Part shown: piece after piece, positions 87-33,597 of the stretch
How the letters are laid out: each line of letters opens with the position of its first letter
Numbering within the stretch: position 1 is the stretch's first letter
Assembly: GCA_947624225.1 (NCBI GenBank)
Contig: CANQJF010000019.1
Span: forward strand, 1 to 38,766
Direction of reading: 5' to 3'
Source: an uncultured Clostridia bacterium
GTDB taxonomy: Bacteria > Bacillota > Clostridia > Christensenellales > Borkfalkiaceae
DNA: 38,766 bases
Program-made: the position numbers and the translations under genes
Notes under the pieces: generated by a model
The model's database searches: none
The model's input: the letters and a program-made list of their open reading frames with translations, nothing else
Told to the model about the DNA's origin: nothing

Positions 87-3000
87 TTAAAATGCGGAGA
101 CGGCTTTCACGCCTTCGTATTTTTTTGTTGCGGGGTCCGTCTGGATATCGTAACTGTTCTTTTGGCTGTCGGCCCCGTACATATAGAAGCGGAAATCCTG
201 CGTCCCGGCCGCGCGCGGCAGGTAGTCCGCGAGCTCGTTCCCGATTGCACTGATGTTGATCAAATACTCGTGCAATCCCTCCTGTCTGTCCGCCGTGAGC
301 TCGGAGAAGTCGAGCTGGGCATAATTCTTTCCGCCGCCATAGACGGCAATGCCTCCGTGCACGAACTCCTTGTCTCCCCGTTTGAGAAGAATGTTCCCGA
401 AAGCCGGGTCGGAATCACAGGTATTCTTGATCATGGCCGCAAGGTCGAGCGTCAAGAGCTTTGCAAAGTCGGCATACTCCCCTGCGACGGATTCATTGAC
501 GGAGATGAGCGTGGTGCTGTCGATCAGCTTGGTATCTTTCCAGTCGTACAGCCGCACATCGCCGACCAAATGGATGACCGAGGCGAAAGAGGTGCCGCCC
601 GTTCCGTACCAGCTCTCGAAAAATTCCGCGTGATAATCGGAATTCTGATACAGGGCAATGCCCGAGAAATTGCACTCCATGCCTATCGTGAAGAGGCCGC
701 TCGTCTCCAACACGCTGTCTTTGAGCGTGACGTCGGTGAGCACATATCTGCTCATGAAGTATTCATCGTCGAGATAATCGTTGGTCTGCGGCAAATACTT
801 CTCGCTCTCCCCCTCCGCAACAAACTTCAAGAGATCGGGCTCCATGCGGGATAAGCTGTCCGTCCCCATGCTCTCGGAGGCGCGGAGCGCGCGGTTGGCA
901 CCCGTCTTTAAGATGAACTCTCTGCCCTGCGAGAGGATGCAGCCGTCGATGCGCACCTCGATGAGGTCATCGCTGCCGACCGAGCCTATCGTGTTTCTGT
1001 CGTCGATAAAGTATCCGTTGCCGTCGCGGTTGCCGCCGTAAGCCCGCACGACATTGCGGCCATTGCGGATACGGCAGTTGATCACGTTGACATCCGCATT
1101 GATTTCCAGCGTGGTGCCGCACTCGTTGAGGAGGGAGAGGTTGAGCTGTTGGTTCCCATCCGCATCCACGTCATAGAGCGAGCTGTCGTTGCAGCCGAGC
1201 AGCACTGCATTGAAGAGAGTGACATTGTCTGTGCGGCAGAGGAATACGACGTTGTCCTGCGCGGCAACGGTCGCGAGGTCGCCGATCCCGACAAAGTCGA
1301 GCGGCCCTCTGAAATATACGCCGCGGCCCGAGCTGCCGTCTTTCAAGTTGGTGAGATATTCGGCATTGATGCTGTATCCGTTGCCATAGAGGCTCGCCTT
1401 GAACTCCAACGCATAGAGAACATTCGCGGCATCGGGCGTTCCGAGATTTTTGTAATACTCGGTGTTGTAGGTGGAGCGCATGGTCTGCAACAGCTCTCCG
1501 CGGGCGGCCTGCGAGAGCACACGGCCCGCTTCGTCCGTCCCGAGCATGATGTCCGAGACGAGCACCACGGGAAGATTGCGGGAAGTTGCATCGTACAGTT
1601 GCGGCCCGGAACTTACCTGCACCGCGTCTTTCACCGCGTTGAAAGTGTACGTGTCGACCACTTCATACCCCAAGTTAAAGCTATCGTTGCCGTCCCATTC
1701 GACGACGATGGTCACCTCGCCCGAGCCCTTTAAGGTCACGAGCGCACGCTGGCCCGTTGCGGAGCCCTTGTCGTCGATGATGTTGGTGACGGTGATCTCC
1801 GCCACGGAGTTGGAACGCTCCTCCGCTTCGGGATGCTCGGGATCGTAAATATAATAGTTGAAATTGGATGCGCCGATGATCTTCTTGTCCGCGTCGTCCT
1901 CTCCTGTCCCGCGGGCATAGGCAATGATATCGATTGCATAGGCGGAATTCTCCACGAGTTCGAGCTTTCCGTCCGTCGTGTCATAGCGGTTGCCCGCGAC
2001 CGTGAGCTGTTTGCCGAGACTGTTGACCGCGCTGCTCTCGATGGCGAGCATCTTGCTGTCTGCCTGCGTGAGCTGGATGGAATCCATCTCCTGCGTGACG
2101 GGCACGGCGATGCGCACGGGCGCAACGTTTGCATAGGGGATCTTTTGCCCCGTCCTGCTGTCCACATAGCCCGCACGCACCCGGAGAACCAAGACATTGA
2201 CGCCGGTCGCCCGCACGCGGCAGACGCTTCCGTCGGTATTGGTCCCGCCATTGGTATCGTCGAGGATGAGCGTCCTCGTCTGCTCGTAATCGGGATTGGA
2301 GGGATCCTCCGTGGAGGGCGTGACGCCCGAGTGGTCTATGACGTCCCAGAGATAGATGACGCCGCTCATCTCCATGTCCGAGACCACGGAGAAAGTGAAG
2401 TCGCGGTTGAGCAGGAGCAGCTGTTCGCTGCCATCCTCCAAGCGACGGTTGTTGCTCTCCGTGCTGACATAGAAAGACATGTCCGCAAATTCAAAGGTGA
2501 CCGTCTGCACGGCGGTGTCGCCGTTGGGACCCGTTGCGGTGACAGAGCAGGTGATGGTCTGATAATTAAAGGTGTCGCGGAACGTGATGTTGCATGCAAA
2601 GCGGCCGTCCGAGATCTTGGTCACTTTTGAGGCGATGGAGGACTGCAACACATTGCGCACGGGATCGCCGTCCGCATCCGTCGCTCCCGTGACGAGCACG
2701 CCGTTCTCCCCGATCTCATACCCCTCCTTGGTCTGCACATACAGGGTGGTCTCGGGCGAGAGCTCCGTCTCCTCCCCCGTGCGGCCGATGGCATACCGCT
2801 GCTCCGCCGCACTTCCGTTGATGAGGATGTTCGCGTCGTCCGAGTTGACGACATCCACCGCGACATGCTTTTCGATGTTCTCGCCGTTGCCCTTGGGCAC
2901 GGTGACGGTGAATTTGGCCTGCCCGCCAAAGGGGAGCAGGATCGTCCCCGCGGACTCGTTGATGATGACTTCATCCTCGAAGCCCTCCTCGGCCGCCAGC

Positions 3001-27362: not shown

Positions 27363-30300
27363 TTAGAAGTCGAGATCGGACTTCTCGACGACTGCCGTCT
27401 TGATCAGGCCTTCGGCGAGGAGTTCTTCTTCGCTACGGAACGCATACTGTGCGGCATAATCAACGGTCTCAGCCTCTTCGTCTTTCACGGTGCCAAGACG
27501 CTCCATCAAGAGTTCCATGAGGCGAAGCGCGCGTTTGAGCCCGACCTTGCTCTTGACTTTCATCATGAGAGGTGTACGCTCATACATCTTCGTGTCGCCC
27601 GCGAACTTCTGGTGATAGACGCTGTCGGGGAACTCATCGGGATTGAGGGCGAGGTAGACGCACAACGTCTTGCCGCGGACCCCGATCTTCGCGATGGTCT
27701 CGTTGTTGTATGCAAAGCGGTCATTCGACCAGTTGATCTGGGATGTAATGTTGCTGTACGAGAGGAAGGTGTTTTTCAGCGTGCTGTAATATTCCTTGAT
27801 GACCTCTTCGCTCTCGATGATCTTCGCGGTGAAGCTCCTCTTGAAGCGCGTGGTCATTTCAGCTTCCGGAATGGGCTCCGCAACTGCTTCCGCGGCCGCA
27901 TCCGCAACTGCCAACTCCTCGGTGACTTCGGAGACGGGCGCCTCCTCTTCGGCAGGAGCGGGCTCCTCGGCGGCTACTTCCTCTTCAACGGGAGCGGGCT
28001 CTTCGGCAACCGCTTCCTCTTCAACAGGGGCGGGCTCTTCGGCAACCACTTCCTCTTCAACAGGGGCGGGCTCTTCGGCGGCCACTTCTTCCTCAACAGG
28101 GGCGGGCTCTTCGGCAACTACTTCCTCTTCAACAGGGGCGGGTTCCTCGGCAACCGTTTCTTCCTCAACGGGAGCGGGCTCTTCGGCGGCCACTTCTTCC
28201 TCAACAGGGGCGGGCTCCTCGGCGGCTACTTCTTCTTCGATGGGAGCGGGCTCCTCGGCAACTACTTCCTCTTCGGCGGGAGCGGGCTCTTCGGTAGCTA
28301 CTTCTTCCTCGGCAACCGCTTCGGCCTCCTTGGCGGCCTCTTCGGCGGCAAGACGCGCTTCCTCAACTGCTTTCACGGCTTCCTCGGCGGCTTTCAGAGC
28401 CTCATCGAGCTGCCTCTGAATCTCCTCCTCTTCGGCGGCTTTCTTCTGCTCTTCAAGGATGGCGTTCACGCGCTCCTCGACGAGGTTGTTCACTTTCTCT
28501 TCGAGCGCCGCGGCGGCTTCTTCTTCCTCGGCGGCCTTGCGAGCCTCCTCTTCTTCGGCAGCGATGCGGTCGGCCTCTTCCTGTGCAAGCCGTGCGGCTT
28601 CCTCTTCGGCGAGACGCGCGATCTCCTCTTCTGCTTTCTTGGCGGCCTCTTCCTCGGCGGCCTTTCTCTGCTCTTCAAGGATGGCGTTCACGCGCTCCTC
28701 GACGAGGTTGTTGACCTTCTCTTCGAGCGCTGCGGCTTCCTCTTCGGCAGCTTTCTTTGCAGCCTCTTCCTCGGCGATGCGGGCAGCCTCTTCCTCAGCG
28801 GCTTTCCTCGCGGCCTCTTCGGCGGCGAGACGGGCTTCCTCTTCTGCGAGACGGGCAGCCTCTTCCTCGGCGGCTTTCTTGGCGGCCTCCTCTTCGACGG
28901 CCTTTCTCTGCTCTTCAAGGATGGCGTTCACGCGCTCCTCGACGAGATTGTTGACTTTCTCTTCCAGCGCTGCGGCGGCCTCTTCCTCGGCAATGCGAGC
29001 GGCTTCTTCCTTGGCGGCTTCCTCCTCGGCGAGGCGGGCAGCCTCTTCCTCGGCGGCAAGACGGGCAGCTTCCTCTTCGGCAGCCTTTCTCGCGGCCTCT
29101 TCCTCGGCGGCAAGGCGCTTCTCCTCTACGAGTTGGGCGACTTTCTCCGCAAGGGCGTCGTAATCGGGCTCCTGCTCCTCTTGTTCGCATGCGGCACAGT
29201 GCTCATCGACGATGGCGATCACTTTCTCAGCAAGTTCGTCATAGTTGATGACGACGTCTACCGGCTTTGCCTCTGCCTCGCATTCTTCACAGCACTTGGC
29301 GAGCTTTTCCGCGACCTTCTCCGCAAGGAAGTCATAGTCCACTTCTTCTTTCTGGGGAACGGGATTTGCGGCGGCCTCTTCCGCGAGACGGATGGCCTGC
29401 TCCTCTTCGGAGAGCTTGCGCTTTTCTTCTACAAGGGCGGCGACTTTTTCGGCGAGTTCATCGTAATCAATGACGACCTCGGCGGTCACGGTTGCGGCCT
29501 GGGGCTCGACTTCCGCTTCGGCTGCCGCTTCTTCGGCGAGTTTCACGGCTGCCTCTTCCTCGGCGGCCTTGTTCTTCTCTTCCATGAGTTCGGCAACGCG
29601 GTTTGCAATGATCTCGCAAACGTCCTCGCCTTCCTCTTCTTCTTCGGCGACCTCGGAGGCCTCCTCTTCGTATTCCTCGTCCTCGGCGATCCACTTCTCT
29701 TCGAACTTGCCGACCACCTTCTCCGCGATGGCCTCGACGCCCTTCTCGTCGACCGTAAGATCGAACTCATGTTCAAGGGCATTGGCCACGCTCTCTGCAA
29801 CGAGATCATAGTCGATCACGGGCAATGTGGTGAGGACACGCTGTGCGATGACTTCTTCATCGGTAACGGGCACGGCCGCGGCAACCTTGTCGGCGATCAG
29901 ATCCGCATCGATGGAATCACCGAGGTAGGCAGCAACTTTCGACGCGATCTTCTCGGCCAACTCGTCGTAATCCATTCCATAGGGAACGGCGGCGACTGTC
30001 TCTTCCGTCTGTGCGGCAACTTCTTCCGCAACGGGCTCGGCCTGCACCGCTTCTTCCTGAGCCGCTTCCTCTGCGGGCTGCTCTTCGGCAACTGCCGCCA
30101 CGGGCTCTGCATTCTGCGCATCGAAGCGATCTTCGAGTGCAAGGAACCCGTCGTTGATGACGGCGAGGATCTCCTCGCGGAACTCGTTGAACTCCTCCCG
30201 CGTGATGACATCGGCAACTTCCTGCTGCTCCTCCGCGGGCTTCTCGCCGATCGTGTGGATCAGCTCTTCGCGGAATGCCGTGAATTTCTCCTCCATCTTG

Positions 30301-30767
30301 TCCGAGTTCTCGGCAATGCGGTCCTCGATGTCCTCCACGCTCTCCACCACGCGCTCCACTTGAAGCTGGGTGCGCTTGGCAATGCGGGCTTCCATCATCG
30401 TGGGATCGAATGCGGCCACGGCGGAAATGGATTTGAGAAGGTCTTTTTTGAGCGCGGCGACCTGTTCGGCGAGCTTGGCTTCGAGATAGCGGGCCATGTC
30501 GCTCGTGTAATGATTGATCGATTCGATCAATGCCCTGTTGTCACCGACGCCCTGTGCAGGCTTGGCCTCGGGCGCGGCGGGCTTTGCATCGCTCTGCTGT
30601 GAGAGATACTCATAGAGGAACTTGAATTCCCGCAGGACGGATTCTGTCCCGTCGCCGACGGACTTTTTGAGTTCTTCCGTACTCGCCTTCTGCTGTTTGC
30701 TCAACATGGCGAACCCGCCGGTGAGTAACTCGCGGTTCATTTCTTCGTTACTTTTGTTTTCGGACAT
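27363..30767 (-). CDS. Ala/Glu-rich coiled-coil repeat protein with conserved C-terminal domain
   Basis: 1134 residues, no signal peptide or membrane segment, so probably cytoplasmic. The N-terminal ~250 residues are helical. Next come about six related units around DYDELAEKVAALVEEK (roughly residues 255-560), two of which carry Cys clusters (CCEEC and CAAC). Three near-identical copies of EEKVNNLVEERVNAILEEQ alternate with long EEAARLAEEEA coiled coils (about 590-780). About ten 12-residue repeats of the type EEPAPVEEEVVA follow (about 820-945). The final ~170 residues form a compact basic domain beginning RFKRSFTAKIIESEEVIKEY. The ATG has an AGGTGA site and its own promoter. Function unknown; the layout suggests a scaffold or cytoskeleton-like protein. 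Confidence 0.85.
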   Translation of the reverse strand: MSENKSNEEMNRELLTGGFAMLSKQQKASTEELKKSVGDGTESVLREFKFLYEYLSQQSDAKPAAPEAKPAQGVGDNRALIESINHYTSDMARYLEAKLAEQVAALKKDLLKSISAVAAFDPTMMEARIAKRTQLQVERVVESVEDIEDRIAENSDKMEEKFTAFREELIHTIGEKPAEEQQEVADVITREEFNEFREEILAVINDGFLALEDRFDAQNAEPVAAVAEEQPAEEAAQEEAVQAEPVAEEVAAQTEETVAAVPYGMDYDELAEKIASKVAAYLGDSIDADLIADKVAAAVPVTDEEVIAQRVLTTLPVIDYDLVAESVANALEHEFDLTVDEKGVEAIAEKVVGKFEEKWIAEDEEYEEEASEVAEEEEEGEDVCEIIANRVAELMEEKNKAAEEEAAVKLAEEAAAEAEVEPQAATVTAEVVIDYDELAEKVAALVEEKRKLSEEEQAIRLAEEAAANPVPQKEEVDYDFLAEKVAEKLAKCCEECEAEAKPVDVVINYDELAEKVIAIVDEHCAACEQEEQEPDYDALAEKVAQLVEEKRLAAEEEAARKAAEEEAARLAAEEEAARLAEEEAAKEEAARIAEEEAAAALEEKVNNLVEERVNAILEEQRKAVEEEAAKKAAEEEAARLAEEEARLAAEEAARKAAEEEAARIAEEEAAKKAAEEEAAALEEKVNNLVEERVNAILEEQRKAAEEEAAKKAEEEIARLAEEEAARLAQEEADRIAAEEEEARKAAEEEEAAAALEEKVNNLVEERVNAILEEQKKAAEEEEIQRQLDEALKAAEEAVKAVEEARLAAEEAAKEAEAVAEEEVATEEPAPAEEEVVAEEPAPIEEEVAAEEPAPVEEEVAAEEPAPVEEETVAEEPAPVEEEVVAEEPAPVEEEVAAEEPAPVEEEVVAEEPAPVEEEAVAEEPAPVEEEVAAEEPAPAEEEAPVSEVTEELAVADAAAEAVAEPIPEAEMTTRFKRSFTAKIIESEEVIKEYYSTLKNTFLSYSNITSQINWSNDRFAYNNETIAKIGVRGKTLCVYLALNPDEFPDSVYHQKFAGDTKMYERTPLMMKVKSKVGLKRALRLMELLMERLGTVKDEEAETVDYAAQYAFRSEEELLAEGLIKTAVVEKSDLDF
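27935..28300 (-). repeat. 36-bp coding repeats (12-residue EEPAPVEEE units)
   Basis: About ten consecutive in-frame copies inside the coiled-coil protein gene, differing mainly in the V/A/T residue after EEE and in a few synonymous sites. The Pro-Ala-Glu composition predicts an extended, highly acidic linker. Confidence 0.85.
28451..28970 (-). repeat. Three long direct repeats in the coiled-coil gene
   Basis: The segment encoding LVEERVNAILEEQ recurs almost identically at about 28455, 28677 and 28917 (spacing about 222 and 240 bp), indicating recent internal duplication and likely copy-number variation. Confidence 0.8.
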
Positions 30768-31979: not shown

Positions 31980-33116
31980 TTACGATCCTTTCCCCGTGAG
32001 GGCCGCCGTGAGCTGGGTGACGATGTCCCCGCTTCCGCCGATGGTCAAACTTTCGAGATGTTCGCAGATCCGCTCGATGTATTCGAGCTCTTTGAGCTTA
32101 TAGAGGGTGGCGTTCTCCTCCATGAGTTTGGCGGTATTGAGCAGAGAGCGCGTGGAGGCGACCTCCTCTCTCCGCGCGATCACGCTCGCCTGTGCACGCT
32201 TTTCGGCGAGGAGCACGGTATTCATGATCTCGCGGATCTCCCCGGGCAGAATGATATCCTTTACGGCGGCCGACTTCACCTCGATGGCCAAGTCGGGGGC
32301 GCGCTCGCGCAATTTTTCCAGCAAGAACGCGGAGACGCCCTCCCTGTCCGCGAGGATGTCGTCCAATTTGAGGCGGCCGATGTACTCTCTGAGCGCGAGC
32401 TGGGCGGCAAGGTGCAGGCCCTCCTCCAAATCGGAGACCTGTGTAGCGGCGCGCACGGGGTCGGAGACGACGTATTCGCACACGCAATTGATGCGCAGAG
32501 AGACCTTATCCGCGGTGAGGATCTCCTGCCCGACGAGGTTCTCCTCCGTGGGTACGGCGGGAAGCGTGCGGAACTCGATCCCGTGGTAGCCCCTCCAAAA
32601 GAAGTGCCGCCCCGCGGGGAGCAATTTTTCAAACTTTCCGTCGATGAAGAGCAACCCGTGCGAGCGCTCGTCCACGACAAACTCCTCATAGAGATCGTGC
32701 CTGAGTTCGAGGAACACTTCGCGGGGGAAATCCTCCGCAACGTACGGCGTCGTGATGTCCGCTTTGAGGAAAGAATTTTCGCCGTGCGTGTTCCAGAATG
32801 CGTACATGCCCGCGGTGTACACGCCCGCAACGGCCCCGTCGACAAAACGGATGCCGAGTTCGCCGCGCGAAACGGCGAGCTGCACCGTCTCGCGGCAGAA
32901 TGCCTCATCGGCGAGGAGCGCCTTGGTATCGGCCAGCGTGCTCGAAACGAGCCCCGTGCAATTGAGCACTTCCACCGTCTTTCCGAAAGGCCCTTCGTAG
33001 ACATGCCTCTTCTCGTTCTTGCGGAGCACAAAATATTTGCCCGGGCGAAGAAGCCCCGCAAAGCAGCCGTTCTTGAAGAGAAGCCCCCTCTGGTTTTCTT
33101 GAATCATGAGTTTCAT
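31980..33116 (-). CDS. Slipin-type SPFH/Band 7 protein with triplicated N-terminal motif
   Basis: 378 residues from the ATG at 33116, chosen because a perfect AGGAGG lies 7 nt upstream; an upstream in-frame ATG at 33194 lacks one. The C-terminal half is an SPFH/Band 7 domain (about 150-330) with the usual ILTADKVSLRINCVCEYVV and the AEKRAQASVIARREE helix. Unusually, there is no N-terminal membrane helix. Instead a motif of the type GLLFxxGxxxxLLxPGxxxF recurs at about residues 8-30, 85-108 and 150-174. SPFH proteins oligomerise into scaffolds or cages. The gene follows a Y RNA-like RNA apparently made from the same promoter. Slipins occur near Ro/RtcB RNA-repair genes in some bacteria (from memory), which suggests an RNA-stress role. 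Confidence 0.85.
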   Translation of the reverse strand: MKLMIQENQRGLLFKNGCFAGLLRPGKYFVLRKNEKRHVYEGPFGKTVEVLNCTGLVSSTLADTKALLADEAFCRETVQLAVSRGELGIRFVDGAVAGVYTAGMYAFWNTHGENSFLKADITTPYVAEDFPREVFLELRHDLYEEFVVDERSHGLLFIDGKFEKLLPAGRHFFWRGYHGIEFRTLPAVPTEENLVGQEILTADKVSLRINCVCEYVVSDPVRAATQVSDLEEGLHLAAQLALREYIGRLKLDDILADREGVSAFLLEKLRERAPDLAIEVKSAAVKDIILPGEIREIMNTVLLAEKRAQASVIARREEVASTRSLLNTAKLMEENATLYKLKELEYIERICEHLESLTIGGSGDIVTQLTAALTGKGS

Positions 33117-33300
33117 AACATCACCTCCTCTATGGTCCACGCTTGACGCGGTCGTTTGCCGTTGTGAATGCCCATGCGGACGGACGATGGTCATCGGTTG
33201 AGCGCACGCCCCCGCGGCCCGATGAGCCTCCGCGGTGCAACGTGTGCGGTATCCCCTCCGAACAGATCGGCCATCCGTGCCCTCCCGCCCAAAGAGGCGC

Positions 33301-33562
33301 GAGAGAGCGCGGGCATTCTGAGAATTCTCCTTCCGTAGGAAAGACTAAGTGCTCTTGCGAGCCTGTTATCCCTTTTCTGGGGCGCCTTTACCACTTGGCT
33401 ACCGAGAGTTCTCGGGTGGGATTCGAACCCACGAAAACATTTTTCGGCTCCCTATTCTAACGGCGCGGAGCCGCCGCCTGCAAGAGCGGTACACGCCTTG
33501 GGAAACCATTGCGCGCCGCGGGTGCACGGATCTCTCCGAATGTCCCCTGCCGCTGCTCCTGC
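33301..33562 (-). ncRNA. yrlA: Y RNA-like RNA (YrlA class) with permuted tRNA mimic
   Basis: A minus-strand RNA starting at a perfect promoter. The predicted 5' end (33559-33533) pairs with 33323-33302 in a long bulged stem: GGAG, bulged C, AGCG, then GGG, CATTC and GAGA, against TCTC, GAATG, CCC, CGCT and CTCT. Inside, small hairpins (33527-33461) precede a module closed by GAGCC/GGCTC (33450-33446 with 33363-33359). That module holds, in order, a canonical T-arm with loop TTCGAAT (33432-33416), an acceptor-like stem CCGAG/CTCGG closed by a tetraloop (33415-33402), the T8A9-like TA, and a D-arm GCC/GGC with loop AAGTGGTAAA (33399-33384). T-arm before D-arm with a capped acceptor and no CCA is the hallmark of YrlA RNAs, which bind the Ro protein. 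No Ro (TROVE) gene lies in the window. The 3' end is inferred from the stem. Confidence 0.72.
33384..33432 (-). other. tRNA-like module of the Y RNA: T-arm, capped acceptor stem, D-arm
   Basis: Consecutive elements on the minus strand: T-stem GTGGG/CCCAC with loop TTCGAAT; the 14-nt hairpin 33415-33402; TA; D-stem GCC/GGC with the invariant GG in its loop. The T-loop and D-loop would meet as a tRNA elbow. The loop sequences keep the sites normally modified by TruB (pseudouridine) and Dus enzymes (dihydrouridine), as reported for Salmonella YrlA. Confidence 0.8.
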
Positions 33563-33568
33563 ATGCTT

Positions 33569-33597
33569 ATTATATAACAGGAGCGCGAAGATGTCAA
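33569..33597 (-). promoter_or_regulatory. Perfect consensus promoter of the Y RNA-slipin unit
   Basis: Minus strand TTGACA (33597-33592), exactly 17 bp, TATAAT (33574-33569): 12 of 12 consensus bases, the best promoter in the window. The predicted start (33560-33562) coincides with the 5' edge of the long terminal stem, which independently supports an RNA gene here. Confidence 0.92.

What the first reader, a model, noticed from the sequence alone, without database searches (positions are those of the whole stretch)
33301..33597. YrlA-type Y RNA carrying a permuted tRNA mimic, driven by a perfect promoter
A T-arm, a capped acceptor stem and a D-arm occur in reverse order to a tRNA, inside an RNA whose predicted 5' end pairs with its 3' part, downstream of a 12/12 consensus promoter. 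This matches the YrlA class of bacterial Y RNAs, which bind Ro and mimic tRNA. Standard tRNA finders would miss it or call a pseudogene. The predicted length (about 260 nt) exceeds typical YrlA RNAs, and the extra hairpins between the 5' strand and the tRNA-like module may be a new domain.
Basis: partly seen in the sequence, partly recalled or inferred. Interest (0 to 1): 0.9.

Follow-up and report, generated by a model that had tools for sequence, protein, structure and literature searches.

The report
Slipin-linked permuted tRNA-mimic leader RNA
A gut bacterium's genome encodes a long folded RNA that carries a scrambled copy of part of a tRNA, placed in front of a gene for a slipin (a protein of a ring-forming family) and, in many relatives, beside RNA-repair genes; it resembles bacterial Y RNAs in style but no Ro protein, their usual partner, was found.

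Summary
The tRNA parts are real. On the MINUS strand, 33569-33597 is a 12/12 sigma-70 promoter, and 33384-33432 holds a T-arm, a capped acceptor-like stem and a D-arm in permuted order. But this is not shown to be a Ro-binding YrlA. It is the middle of a ~440-nt, three-domain RNA (about 33562 to 33120) that ends just before the ribosome-binding site of a slipin/SPFH gene (31980-33116).

At least one domain of this RNA lies upstream of 79 of 80 related slipin genes. In 61 genomes of the genus, RNA and slipin occur in exactly the same 6. All three domains covary. No TROVE (Ro) gene was found in this genome or in the 80 slipin genomes. Relatives carry WYL regulators (56 of 71 with flank), RtcB (42 of 68 with flank), RlaP or PNKP nearby: RNA repair. 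Some close relatives add an anticodon-arm-like hairpin, completing a permuted tRNA.

Best reading: a tRNA-mimic RNA partner of slipin in RNA repair, probably the 'tRNA-like molecule' that Burroughs and Aravind (2016, recalled, not readable here) linked to SPFH/Band-7 proteins. A cis-regulatory leader is the main rival.

The parts
33569..33597 (-). sigma-70 promoter TTGACA-17-TATAAT, 12 of 12
   Evidence: near-consensus promoters 153-186 nt before the T-arm in all six genus members G000, G060, G004, G051, G028, G013
33120..33562 (-). whole structured leader RNA (start inferred from the -10 box, end from the homology limit and the ribosome-binding site)
   Evidence: leader HMM match 33579-33141, E 1.6e-34; the window was among the 31 training rows; transcript ends not measured
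33472..33562 (-). 5' domain: closing stem 33550-33562 with 33480-33489 and conserved hairpin 33488-33517
33462..33478 (-). G+C-rich hairpin between 5' domain and tRNA mimic
   Evidence: read from sequence; fold; conservation not tested
33416..33432 (-). T-arm GTGGG-TTCGAAT-CCCAC
33402..33415 (-). capped acceptor-like stem CCGAG-AACT-CTCGG
33384..33399 (-). D-arm GCC-AAGTGGTAAA-GGC
33370..33382 (-). small hairpin after the D-arm; in some relatives an anticodon-arm-like hairpin at this place, in the window degenerate
   Evidence: helix 4
33170..33287 (-). 3' domain with GGATACCG (33247-33254) and GCTCAA (33196-33205) motifs
   Evidence: covariance model R1 at 33172-33285, 29.4 bits, E 0.0024 in the own genome, 1.4e-4 in a 10-locus search; the window was a training row; 37 of 42 pairs show double changes in the family
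33114..33130 (-). ribosome-binding site and start codon of the slipin gene (GAGGAGGTGATGTTATG)
31980..33116 (-). slipin / SPFH (Band_7) protein gene, 378 aa
   Evidence: Pfam Band_7 E 2.7e-26; SPFH part matches stomatin and HflK chains

Best explanation
The element is a ~440-nt structured RNA, read from a consensus promoter on the minus strand and continuous with the slipin gene. It has three domains: a 5' domain with a very conserved hairpin, a permuted tRNA mimic (T-arm, capped acceptor-like stem, D-arm), and a long branched 3' domain. Mechanism (inferred): the RNA is made together with slipin and acts as its RNA partner. Slipin, an SPFH protein of a family that forms rings and cages, serves as scaffold; the elbow-like T/D module attracts tRNA-handling proteins (ligase RtcB, RlaP, PNKP, tRNA-modifying enzymes) or tRNA-cutting nucleases, so that repair is concentrated or the cutters are decoyed. 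In most relatives WYL-type genes flank the locus and may switch it on through a TTTTTTTCCGTGA box; in the window's genus the six loci carry near-consensus promoters, which suggests steady expression. Shown here: structure and covariation, linkage to slipin and, in relatives, to repair genes, no TROVE found. Inferred: transcript, complex with slipin, function.
For: RNA (3' domain model) and slipin occur in exactly the same 6 of 61 genus genomes. A leader HMM matches upstream of 77 of 80 slipin genes at E<=2.9e-4, same strand in every case (31 training rows, recounted in 114); model R1 adds L138 and L140: 79 of 80 with at least one domain. Covariation: mimic 13 of 19 pairs with double changes, score 0.365 vs 0.197 shuffled (34 seqs); 5' hairpins 11 of 15, 0.254 vs 0.156 (57 seqs); 3' domain 37 of 42, 0.598 vs 0.206 (55 seqs); 0 of 500 shuffles reach the covariation score in each. 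Without selecting for pairing, a stem of >=5 bp follows the T-arm in 59 of 71 loci vs 26.5% of shuffles. Neighbours among 80 loci: WYL-type genes 56 of 71 with flank, RtcB 42 of 68 with flank, RlaP 6, PNKP 2, DUF2828/DUF7788 3; 65 of 80 have at least one. In 11 loci another gene (HYP11) lies directly upstream of slipin, and in 10 of them the RNA lies upstream of that gene, so the RNA is not simply bound to slipin's own ribosome-binding site. The own genome has RtcB on another contig.
Against: No expression or binding data. No evident terminator separates the RNA from slipin (median 48 nt from 3' domain to the slipin match; 10 of 60 gaps have a run of >=5 T), which equally suits a cis-acting leader. 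The window has no tblastn match to the WYL, RtcB, RlaP, DUF2828, PNKP or HYP11 representatives, and 15 of 80 relatives lack the five repair/WYL types. L132 lacks the RNA by my models; L115 and L096 match in the 3' domain only. L094 carries a normal-order tRNA element in the leader and L073 just reaches the ordinary tRNA cut-off (30.4 vs 29 bits), so the permuted form is not universal. In one search two weaker measures were reached by shuffles (further pair types 62 of 500, pairs with double changes 3 of 500). R3 also gave 5 matches outside leaders.
Confidence: 0.6

Rival explanations
1. Cis-acting leader: the RNA is a 5' UTR whose tRNA mimic senses tRNA-binding, tRNA-processing or tRNA-cutting factors and tunes expression of slipin and the genes behind it.
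For: Upstream on the same strand in the 77 HMM-positive loci, contiguous with the gene, no evident terminator; operon neighbours are often repair genes.
Against: No conserved helix that I found includes the ribosome-binding site or an attenuator; predicted pairing stops before it. In 10 loci a further gene lies between RNA and slipin. Size and three separate domains exceed a usual sensor (inference).
Confidence: 0.3
2. Authentic YrlA Y RNA that binds Ro60/Rsr.
For: Permuted T-arm/capped stem/D-arm; sub-threshold YrlA match 27.7 bits, E 6.7e-4; 35.1 and 33.0 bits in relatives L073 and L126. Three relatives encode DUF2828/DUF7788 proteins with a DxSGS vWA-like motif that could be Ro-like (inference).
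Against: TROVE not found in the own genome or in 80 slipin genomes; DUF2828 not found in the own genome either, though that search rang in no control; terminal stem unsupported; about four times the YrlA model length of 114.
Confidence: 0.04
3. Decayed or tandem tRNA genes giving a chance permuted look.
For: In the genus most YrlA-model hits that I inspected are junctions of neighbouring tRNA genes: 27 of 30 loci.
Against: ARAGORN finds no tRNA in the window; no CCA after the T-arm; the capped stem covaries across relatives; the module is embedded between two other covarying domains.
Confidence: 0.01

Closest known systems
YrlA bacterial Y RNAs (Rfam RF02553; Chen et al. 2014, recalled)
   Same: Permuted tRNA mimic: T-arm, capped acceptor stem, D-arm; Y RNAs are encoded with RtcB in some bacteria (PMC7790460, passages read).
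   Different: No TROVE gene found; linked to slipin; ~440 nt with 5' and 3' domains; 5' end pairs within the 5' domain; far below the YrlA gathering score; some relatives add an anticodon-arm-like hairpin.
SPFH/Band-7-associated 'novel tRNA-like molecule' of RNA-repair systems (Burroughs and Aravind 2016, NAR 44:8525; abstract recalled, paper not held; only its title seen in reference lists)
   Same: tRNA-like RNA beside an SPFH gene among RNA-repair genes: probably the same class.
   Different: Cannot be compared in detail. Whether the permuted order, the three-domain layout, the lack of Ro and the promoter/WYL-box split were described there is unknown to me.
Rsr-Y RNA platforms with RtcB/RtcA (PMC7790460; PMC7824862; passages read)
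   Same: A ring-type protein (recalled) plus a tRNA-like RNA encoded with RNA ligase.
   Different: Slipin replaces Ro as the constant gene partner; WYL rather than RtcR regulators flank it.
P. aeruginosa PaFlo8 SPFH gene in the rtc locus (PMC13086221, one passage read)
   Same: SPFH gene inside an RNA-repair locus.
   Different: No RNA is mentioned in that passage; the locus was not examined here.

Membership tests
YrlA Y RNA (RF02553) | permuted tRNA-like module | tested here: met
YrlA Y RNA (RF02553) | Rfam gathering score (69 bits) | tested here: not met
   27.7 bits; no YrlA match at gathering in the window or in 12 relatives
YrlA Y RNA (RF02553) | Ro/TROVE partner gene in the genome or beside the RNA | tested here: not met
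   0 of 1 own genome, 0 of 80 slipin genomes, completeness of the 80 not told; one control genome rang
YrlA Y RNA (RF02553) | stem formed by the RNA's 5' and 3' ends, used for Ro binding (recalled) | tested here: not met
   no support for leader start vs post-D-arm region (n=68), nor for strands flanking the module (n=73, n=71); only those intervals were tested
YrlA Y RNA (RF02553) | length near 114 nt | tested here: not met
   conserved RNA ~440 nt
YrlA Y RNA (RF02553) | tRNA-type base modifications, Ro binding | not testable with these tools
   needs wet work
SPFH/Band-7-linked tRNA-like RNA (Burroughs and Aravind 2016, recalled) | adjacent to an SPFH gene | tested here: met
SPFH/Band-7-linked tRNA-like RNA (Burroughs and Aravind 2016, recalled) | tRNA-like fold | tested here: met
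   (secondary structure only)
SPFH/Band-7-linked tRNA-like RNA (Burroughs and Aravind 2016, recalled) | RNA-repair gene neighbourhood | tested here: inconclusive
   not in the window itself; repair or WYL neighbours in 65 of 80 relatives
SPFH/Band-7-linked tRNA-like RNA (Burroughs and Aravind 2016, recalled) | same sequence and structure as published | not testable with these tools
   paper not held
tmRNA (permuted, two-piece) | is the genome's tmRNA | tested here: not met
   ordinary tmRNA match, 143 bits, on contig C53; no room for an intervening segment in the 4-nt cap
Known riboswitch/T-box leader | Rfam match | tested here: not met
   none at gathering in the window

The most novel reading that the evidence does not exclude
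A bacterial ribonucleoprotein in which an SPFH ring or cage (slipin) is built with, or filled by, an RNA that mimics a whole tRNA in permuted order (T-arm, acceptor, D-arm and, in some relatives, an anticodon arm), independent of Ro: a counterpart in design to Ro-Y RNA particles and, loosely, to vaults. The RNA would be cut from the leader of the slipin mRNA, and its anticodon-like loops could serve as decoy or sensor for anticodon nucleases while RtcB-type enzymes repair real tRNAs.
Probability: 0.3. Interest if true: 0.9.

Novelty: new variant of a known kind. Interest (0 to 1): 0.62.

Why it matters
As far as I know, tRNA mimicry by bacterial Y RNAs has been studied with Ro. A large covarying RNA, absent from Rfam at gathering thresholds, with the same permuted trick but constantly paired with slipin gives a second system in which to ask what the mimic does. 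It also gives a concrete RNA candidate for why SPFH genes sit in RNA-repair loci, and a testable WYL-type promoter box.

Tried and rejected
Rejected: canonical YrlA (no TROVE found, no terminal stem); permuted tmRNA (ordinary tmRNA elsewhere); tRNA-array artefact (true for 27 of 30 YrlA-model loci inspected in the genus, not for this one). An encoded peptide was not excluded: the window leader holds three short ORFs, one per frame, not tested for conservation. Uninformative: the phylum search with model R1 (0 of 299) missed even the own genome, as only 11 candidates per genome were scored. Of the 4 other slipin genomes in a 299-genome phylum sample, R1 and R3 found the RNA in L152 and L153, R3 alone in L154, neither in L151. 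No slipin relative confirmed in viral contigs, no match to the 5' hairpin pattern there, no similar phage DNA. The DUF2828 search of the own genome rang in no control, so absence is not shown. Structure prediction of slipin was asked for four times and the machine was busy. Literature: nine searches, of which I saw listings and, for some of the papers, an outline or passages, showed no text describing this RNA; the 2016 paper that I recall as doing so is not held. A first alignment against the wrong part of L002 and longest-ORF coordinates that picked antisense frames in some loci were discarded.

Full report
Observation. The element lies on the minus strand. The promoter TTGACA-17-TATAAT at 33597..33569 is perfect and is the only match in the window at one mismatch or fewer. 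The T-arm (33416-33432), a 5-bp capped stem (33402-33415) and a D-arm (33384-33399) follow in permuted order. ARAGORN reports no tRNA in the window. Rfam at gathering thresholds gives nothing for the whole window; at relaxed thresholds YrlA scores 27.7 bits, E 6.7e-4, against a gathering score of 69. The single-sequence fold of the leader has z -2.0, with 8 of 200 shuffles folding as well.

Relatives in the genus. A DNA search of 61 genus genomes found, besides the window, one full-length relative at 75% identity (G060) and short matches in G004 and G051. The YrlA model rang in 46 of 61 genus genomes at E<=0.1, none over the cut-off. I inspected the 30 loci that this search fetched: 27 lie at tRNA genes and 3 (L011, L018, L021) are permuted modules without a tRNA. 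Some further hits, read from fetched stretches, gave no other member. YrlA-model hits alone therefore mean little. The members found this way are G000, G060, G004, G051 and G028, with visible compensatory changes.

Linkage to slipin. Aligning these five loci showed conservation past the module, up to the start of one gene family in different upstream contexts. That gene (31980-33116, minus) is a Band_7/SPFH slipin. A protein search found it in 6 of 61 genus genomes: G000, G004, G013, G028, G051, G060. A covariance model of the 3' domain, searched in the same genomes, rang in exactly those 6. In G013 RNA and gene lie near the ends of two contigs. By arithmetic such an exact overlap has a chance of about 1 in 5.6e7 if genomes were independent, which they are not fully.

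Beyond the genus. A scan of species genomes with the slipin alignment (A2) kept the best 80 loci of 530 relatives, mostly titled as Clostridia-group bacteria, one as Lentisphaerae. My strict pattern rang in the 1500 nt upstream on the gene's strand in 61 of 80 loci, upstream on the opposite strand in 2 of 80, and in the rest of the locus (both strands) in 11 of 80. Many of the 19 misses still show a T-arm or the flanking motifs by eye. A leader HMM from 31 sequences matched 77 of 80 loci, best E 2.9e-4 or lower, all on the gene's strand. Model R1 adds L138 and L140, so 79 of 80 carry at least one domain; L132 has none. The T/cap/D model R3 rang in the leader of 70 of 80 loci at E<=0.01, two of them over the T-arm only (L065, L117), and 5 further matches lay outside leaders; 32 of the 70 were training rows or duplicates of them. 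Not detected by R3: L084, L092, L096, L105, L115, L124, L132, L136, L138, L140.

Structure. Counts were made on MAFFT alignments not fitted to a structure, but the structures were derived from the same alignments, and I gave each alignment a chosen part of the sequences available (34 of 78, 57 of 77 and 55 of 78). Mimic module: 87.1% of cells paired, 13 of 19 pairs with double changes, covariation 0.365 against 0.197 in shuffles and at most 0.144 when slid; two weaker measures were reached by shuffles (further pair types 62 of 500, pairs with double changes 3 of 500). The D-arm is the weakest helix (80.9% paired, one of four pairs with double changes). 5' hairpins: 93.3% paired, 11 of 15 pairs with double changes, 0.254 against 0.156. 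3' domain: 84.9% paired, 37 of 42 pairs with double changes (1 of 500 shuffles reached that count), 0.598 against 0.206. None of 500 shuffles reached the covariation score in any of the three. A test anchored on the T-loop, without selecting for pairing, found a stem of at least 5 bp next to it in 59 of 71 loci against 26.5% of dinucleotide shuffles; the T-stem is fully paired in 70 of 71 (four of 75 loci lacked the anchor).

Swap tests between species give it no support in the intervals tried: leader start with the region after the D-arm scores 14.28 for own against 14.37 for foreign partners (1282 of 2000 permutations as good, n=68). Strands flanking the module give no signal either (11.27 vs 11.46, n=73; 13.68 vs 14.03, n=71). 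The leader start pairs instead with the 3' side of the 5' domain (16.2 vs 13.9, 0 of 2000, n=70); the 3' domain stem is also supported (18.85 vs 13.86, 0 of 2000, n=74). A T-stem test in the same call had only 2 usable rows and says nothing.

An anticodon-arm-like hairpin. After the D-arm, several leaders carry a 5- or 6-bp stem with a 7-nt loop of the form YUGNNAA: L073 CUGCUAA, G051/L135 CUGAUAA, G028/L129 CUGUUAA, L126 CUGUCAA, G013/L145 UUGCUAA, L101 CUGUCAA. With a looser loop rule (YUNNNRN on at least 4 bp) 12 of 57 rows with a located D-arm have it, duplicate rows included, against 2.9% of shuffles; in 21 rows the D-arm was not located by my rule. Together with T-arm, capped acceptor and D-arm this makes a complete tRNA opened at the variable loop. 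In the window, G060 and L064 the hairpin is degenerate (CCCC-AGAAAA-GGG in the window), and in many other lineages it is a plain hairpin. That the loops could decoy anticodon nucleases is inference.

Neighbours. In the 80 loci, WYL-type genes are present in 56 of 71 with at least 1800 nt upstream, RtcB in 42 of 68 with enough downstream DNA (48 of 80 in all), RlaP in 6, PNKP in 2, and a DUF2828/DUF7788 protein with a vWA-like DxSGS motif in 3. One of the two WYL representatives passes Pfam WYL; the second matched no Pfam family and is called WYL-type from my clustering. 65 of 80 loci have at least one of these; the window does not, but the own genome encodes RtcB on another contig. A TTTTTTTCCGTGA-like box lies upstream of 61 of 72 leaders examined, 51 of them with WYL-type genes; a TTGAC-type promoter was found in 5 of 72, none with WYL-type genes. 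All six genus members carry near-consensus promoters 153-186 nt before the T-arm. I infer that the box is an activator site and that the window's lineage has replaced it by a strong promoter. Whether WYL genes exist elsewhere in the own genome was not searched.

Ro. TROVE (PF05731) was not found in the own genome (98% complete) or in the 80 genomes that carry the slipin loci; one of 14 control genomes, Deinobacterium, rang each time. The completeness of those 80 is not told.

Variation. L094 has a normal-order tRNA-like element (39.5 bits, above the tRNA cut-off of 29) in the leader, and L073, whose D-arm and anticodon-like hairpin stand in tRNA order, just reaches that cut-off (30.4 bits). 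ARAGORN called a tRNA-Asp inside the L120 leader. Ten of 69 leaders carry two T-arm-like hairpins. L115 and L096 match in the 3' domain only. So tRNA likeness, rather than one fixed permuted form, seems to be what is kept; this is inference.

Protein. The slipin profile matches solved stomatin, QmcA and HflK chains over its SPFH part; several of the entries hold many chains, in line with ring or cage assemblies. The N-terminal ~130 residues were not covered by those matches. Structure prediction could not be run.

How it works. The most likely reading is a tRNA-mimicking partner RNA for slipin within RNA repair, by analogy with TROVE proteins described as an RNP platform for RNA repair with a tRNA-like partner (PMC7824862, one passage) and with Rsr-Y RNA operons (PMC7790460, passages). 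Against this stands the simple option of a cis-acting leader, because no evident terminator separates RNA and gene. In 10 loci a further gene lies between the RNA and slipin, and no conserved helix that I found includes the ribosome-binding site; both favour a trans role mildly. No experiment supports either.

Novelty. I recall the abstract of Burroughs and Aravind 2016 (NAR 44:8525) as naming SPFH/Band-7 modules with a cognate 'novel tRNA-like molecule'. The paper is not held, its title was seen only in reference lists, and nine literature searches showed no other description (listed in Tried and rejected). The class is thus probably announced; the permuted order, the anticodon-like hairpin, the three-domain architecture, the covariation, the lack of Ro and the promoter/WYL split shown here may or may not be new. 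At gathering thresholds the window gave no Rfam match and 12 relatives gave only the L094 tRNA. I therefore file it as a new variant of a known kind.

Noticed in passing
L094:3666-3735: Leader carries a normal-order tRNA (39.5 bits; GTT in the anticodon place) where others carry the permuted mimic.
   Followed up: partly
L073, L126, L135, L129, L145, L101 leaders, just after the D-arm: Anticodon-arm-like hairpin with loop YUGNNAA, so that the mimic has all four arms of a tRNA in permuted order.
   Followed up: partly
L074, L081, L086, L097, L102, L067, L114, L128, L085, L065 leaders: Two T-arm-like hairpins in one leader (the first mostly GGGGTTCAACTCCCC) in 10 of 69 leaders.
   Followed up: partly
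80 slipin loci, about 40 nt before the leader: Conserved TTTTTTTCCGTGA-like box in 61 of 72 leaders, in several overlapping what looks like the upstream gene's terminator U-tract; candidate WYL operator.
   Followed up: partly
L097:570-2168, L099:1942-3396, L130:1116-2747: DUF2828/DUF7788-type proteins with a DxSGS vWA-like motif encoded upstream of the RNA; possibly Ro-like by domain layout (Pfam run on the first two only).
   Followed up: partly
L120:3095-3175 and 1534-1617 (minus): Two Gut-1 RNA matches (one above, one below the cut-off), one of them between the leader RNA and slipin.
   Followed up: no
window 27363-30767 (-): 1134-aa acidic repeat-rich protein with long EEA-type and EEPAPVEE repeats.
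   Followed up: no
genus genomes, RF02553 hits: Rfam's YrlA model rings on junctions of adjacent tRNA genes (27 of 30 loci inspected), giving false full-length hits below the cut-off.
   Followed up: yes
12 loci (L093, L095, L097, L103, L109, L110, L114, L123, L130, L132, L142, L143): An unknown ~210-aa protein (its representative has no Pfam or NCBIfam match) beside slipin; directly upstream of slipin in 11 of them.
   Followed up: partly
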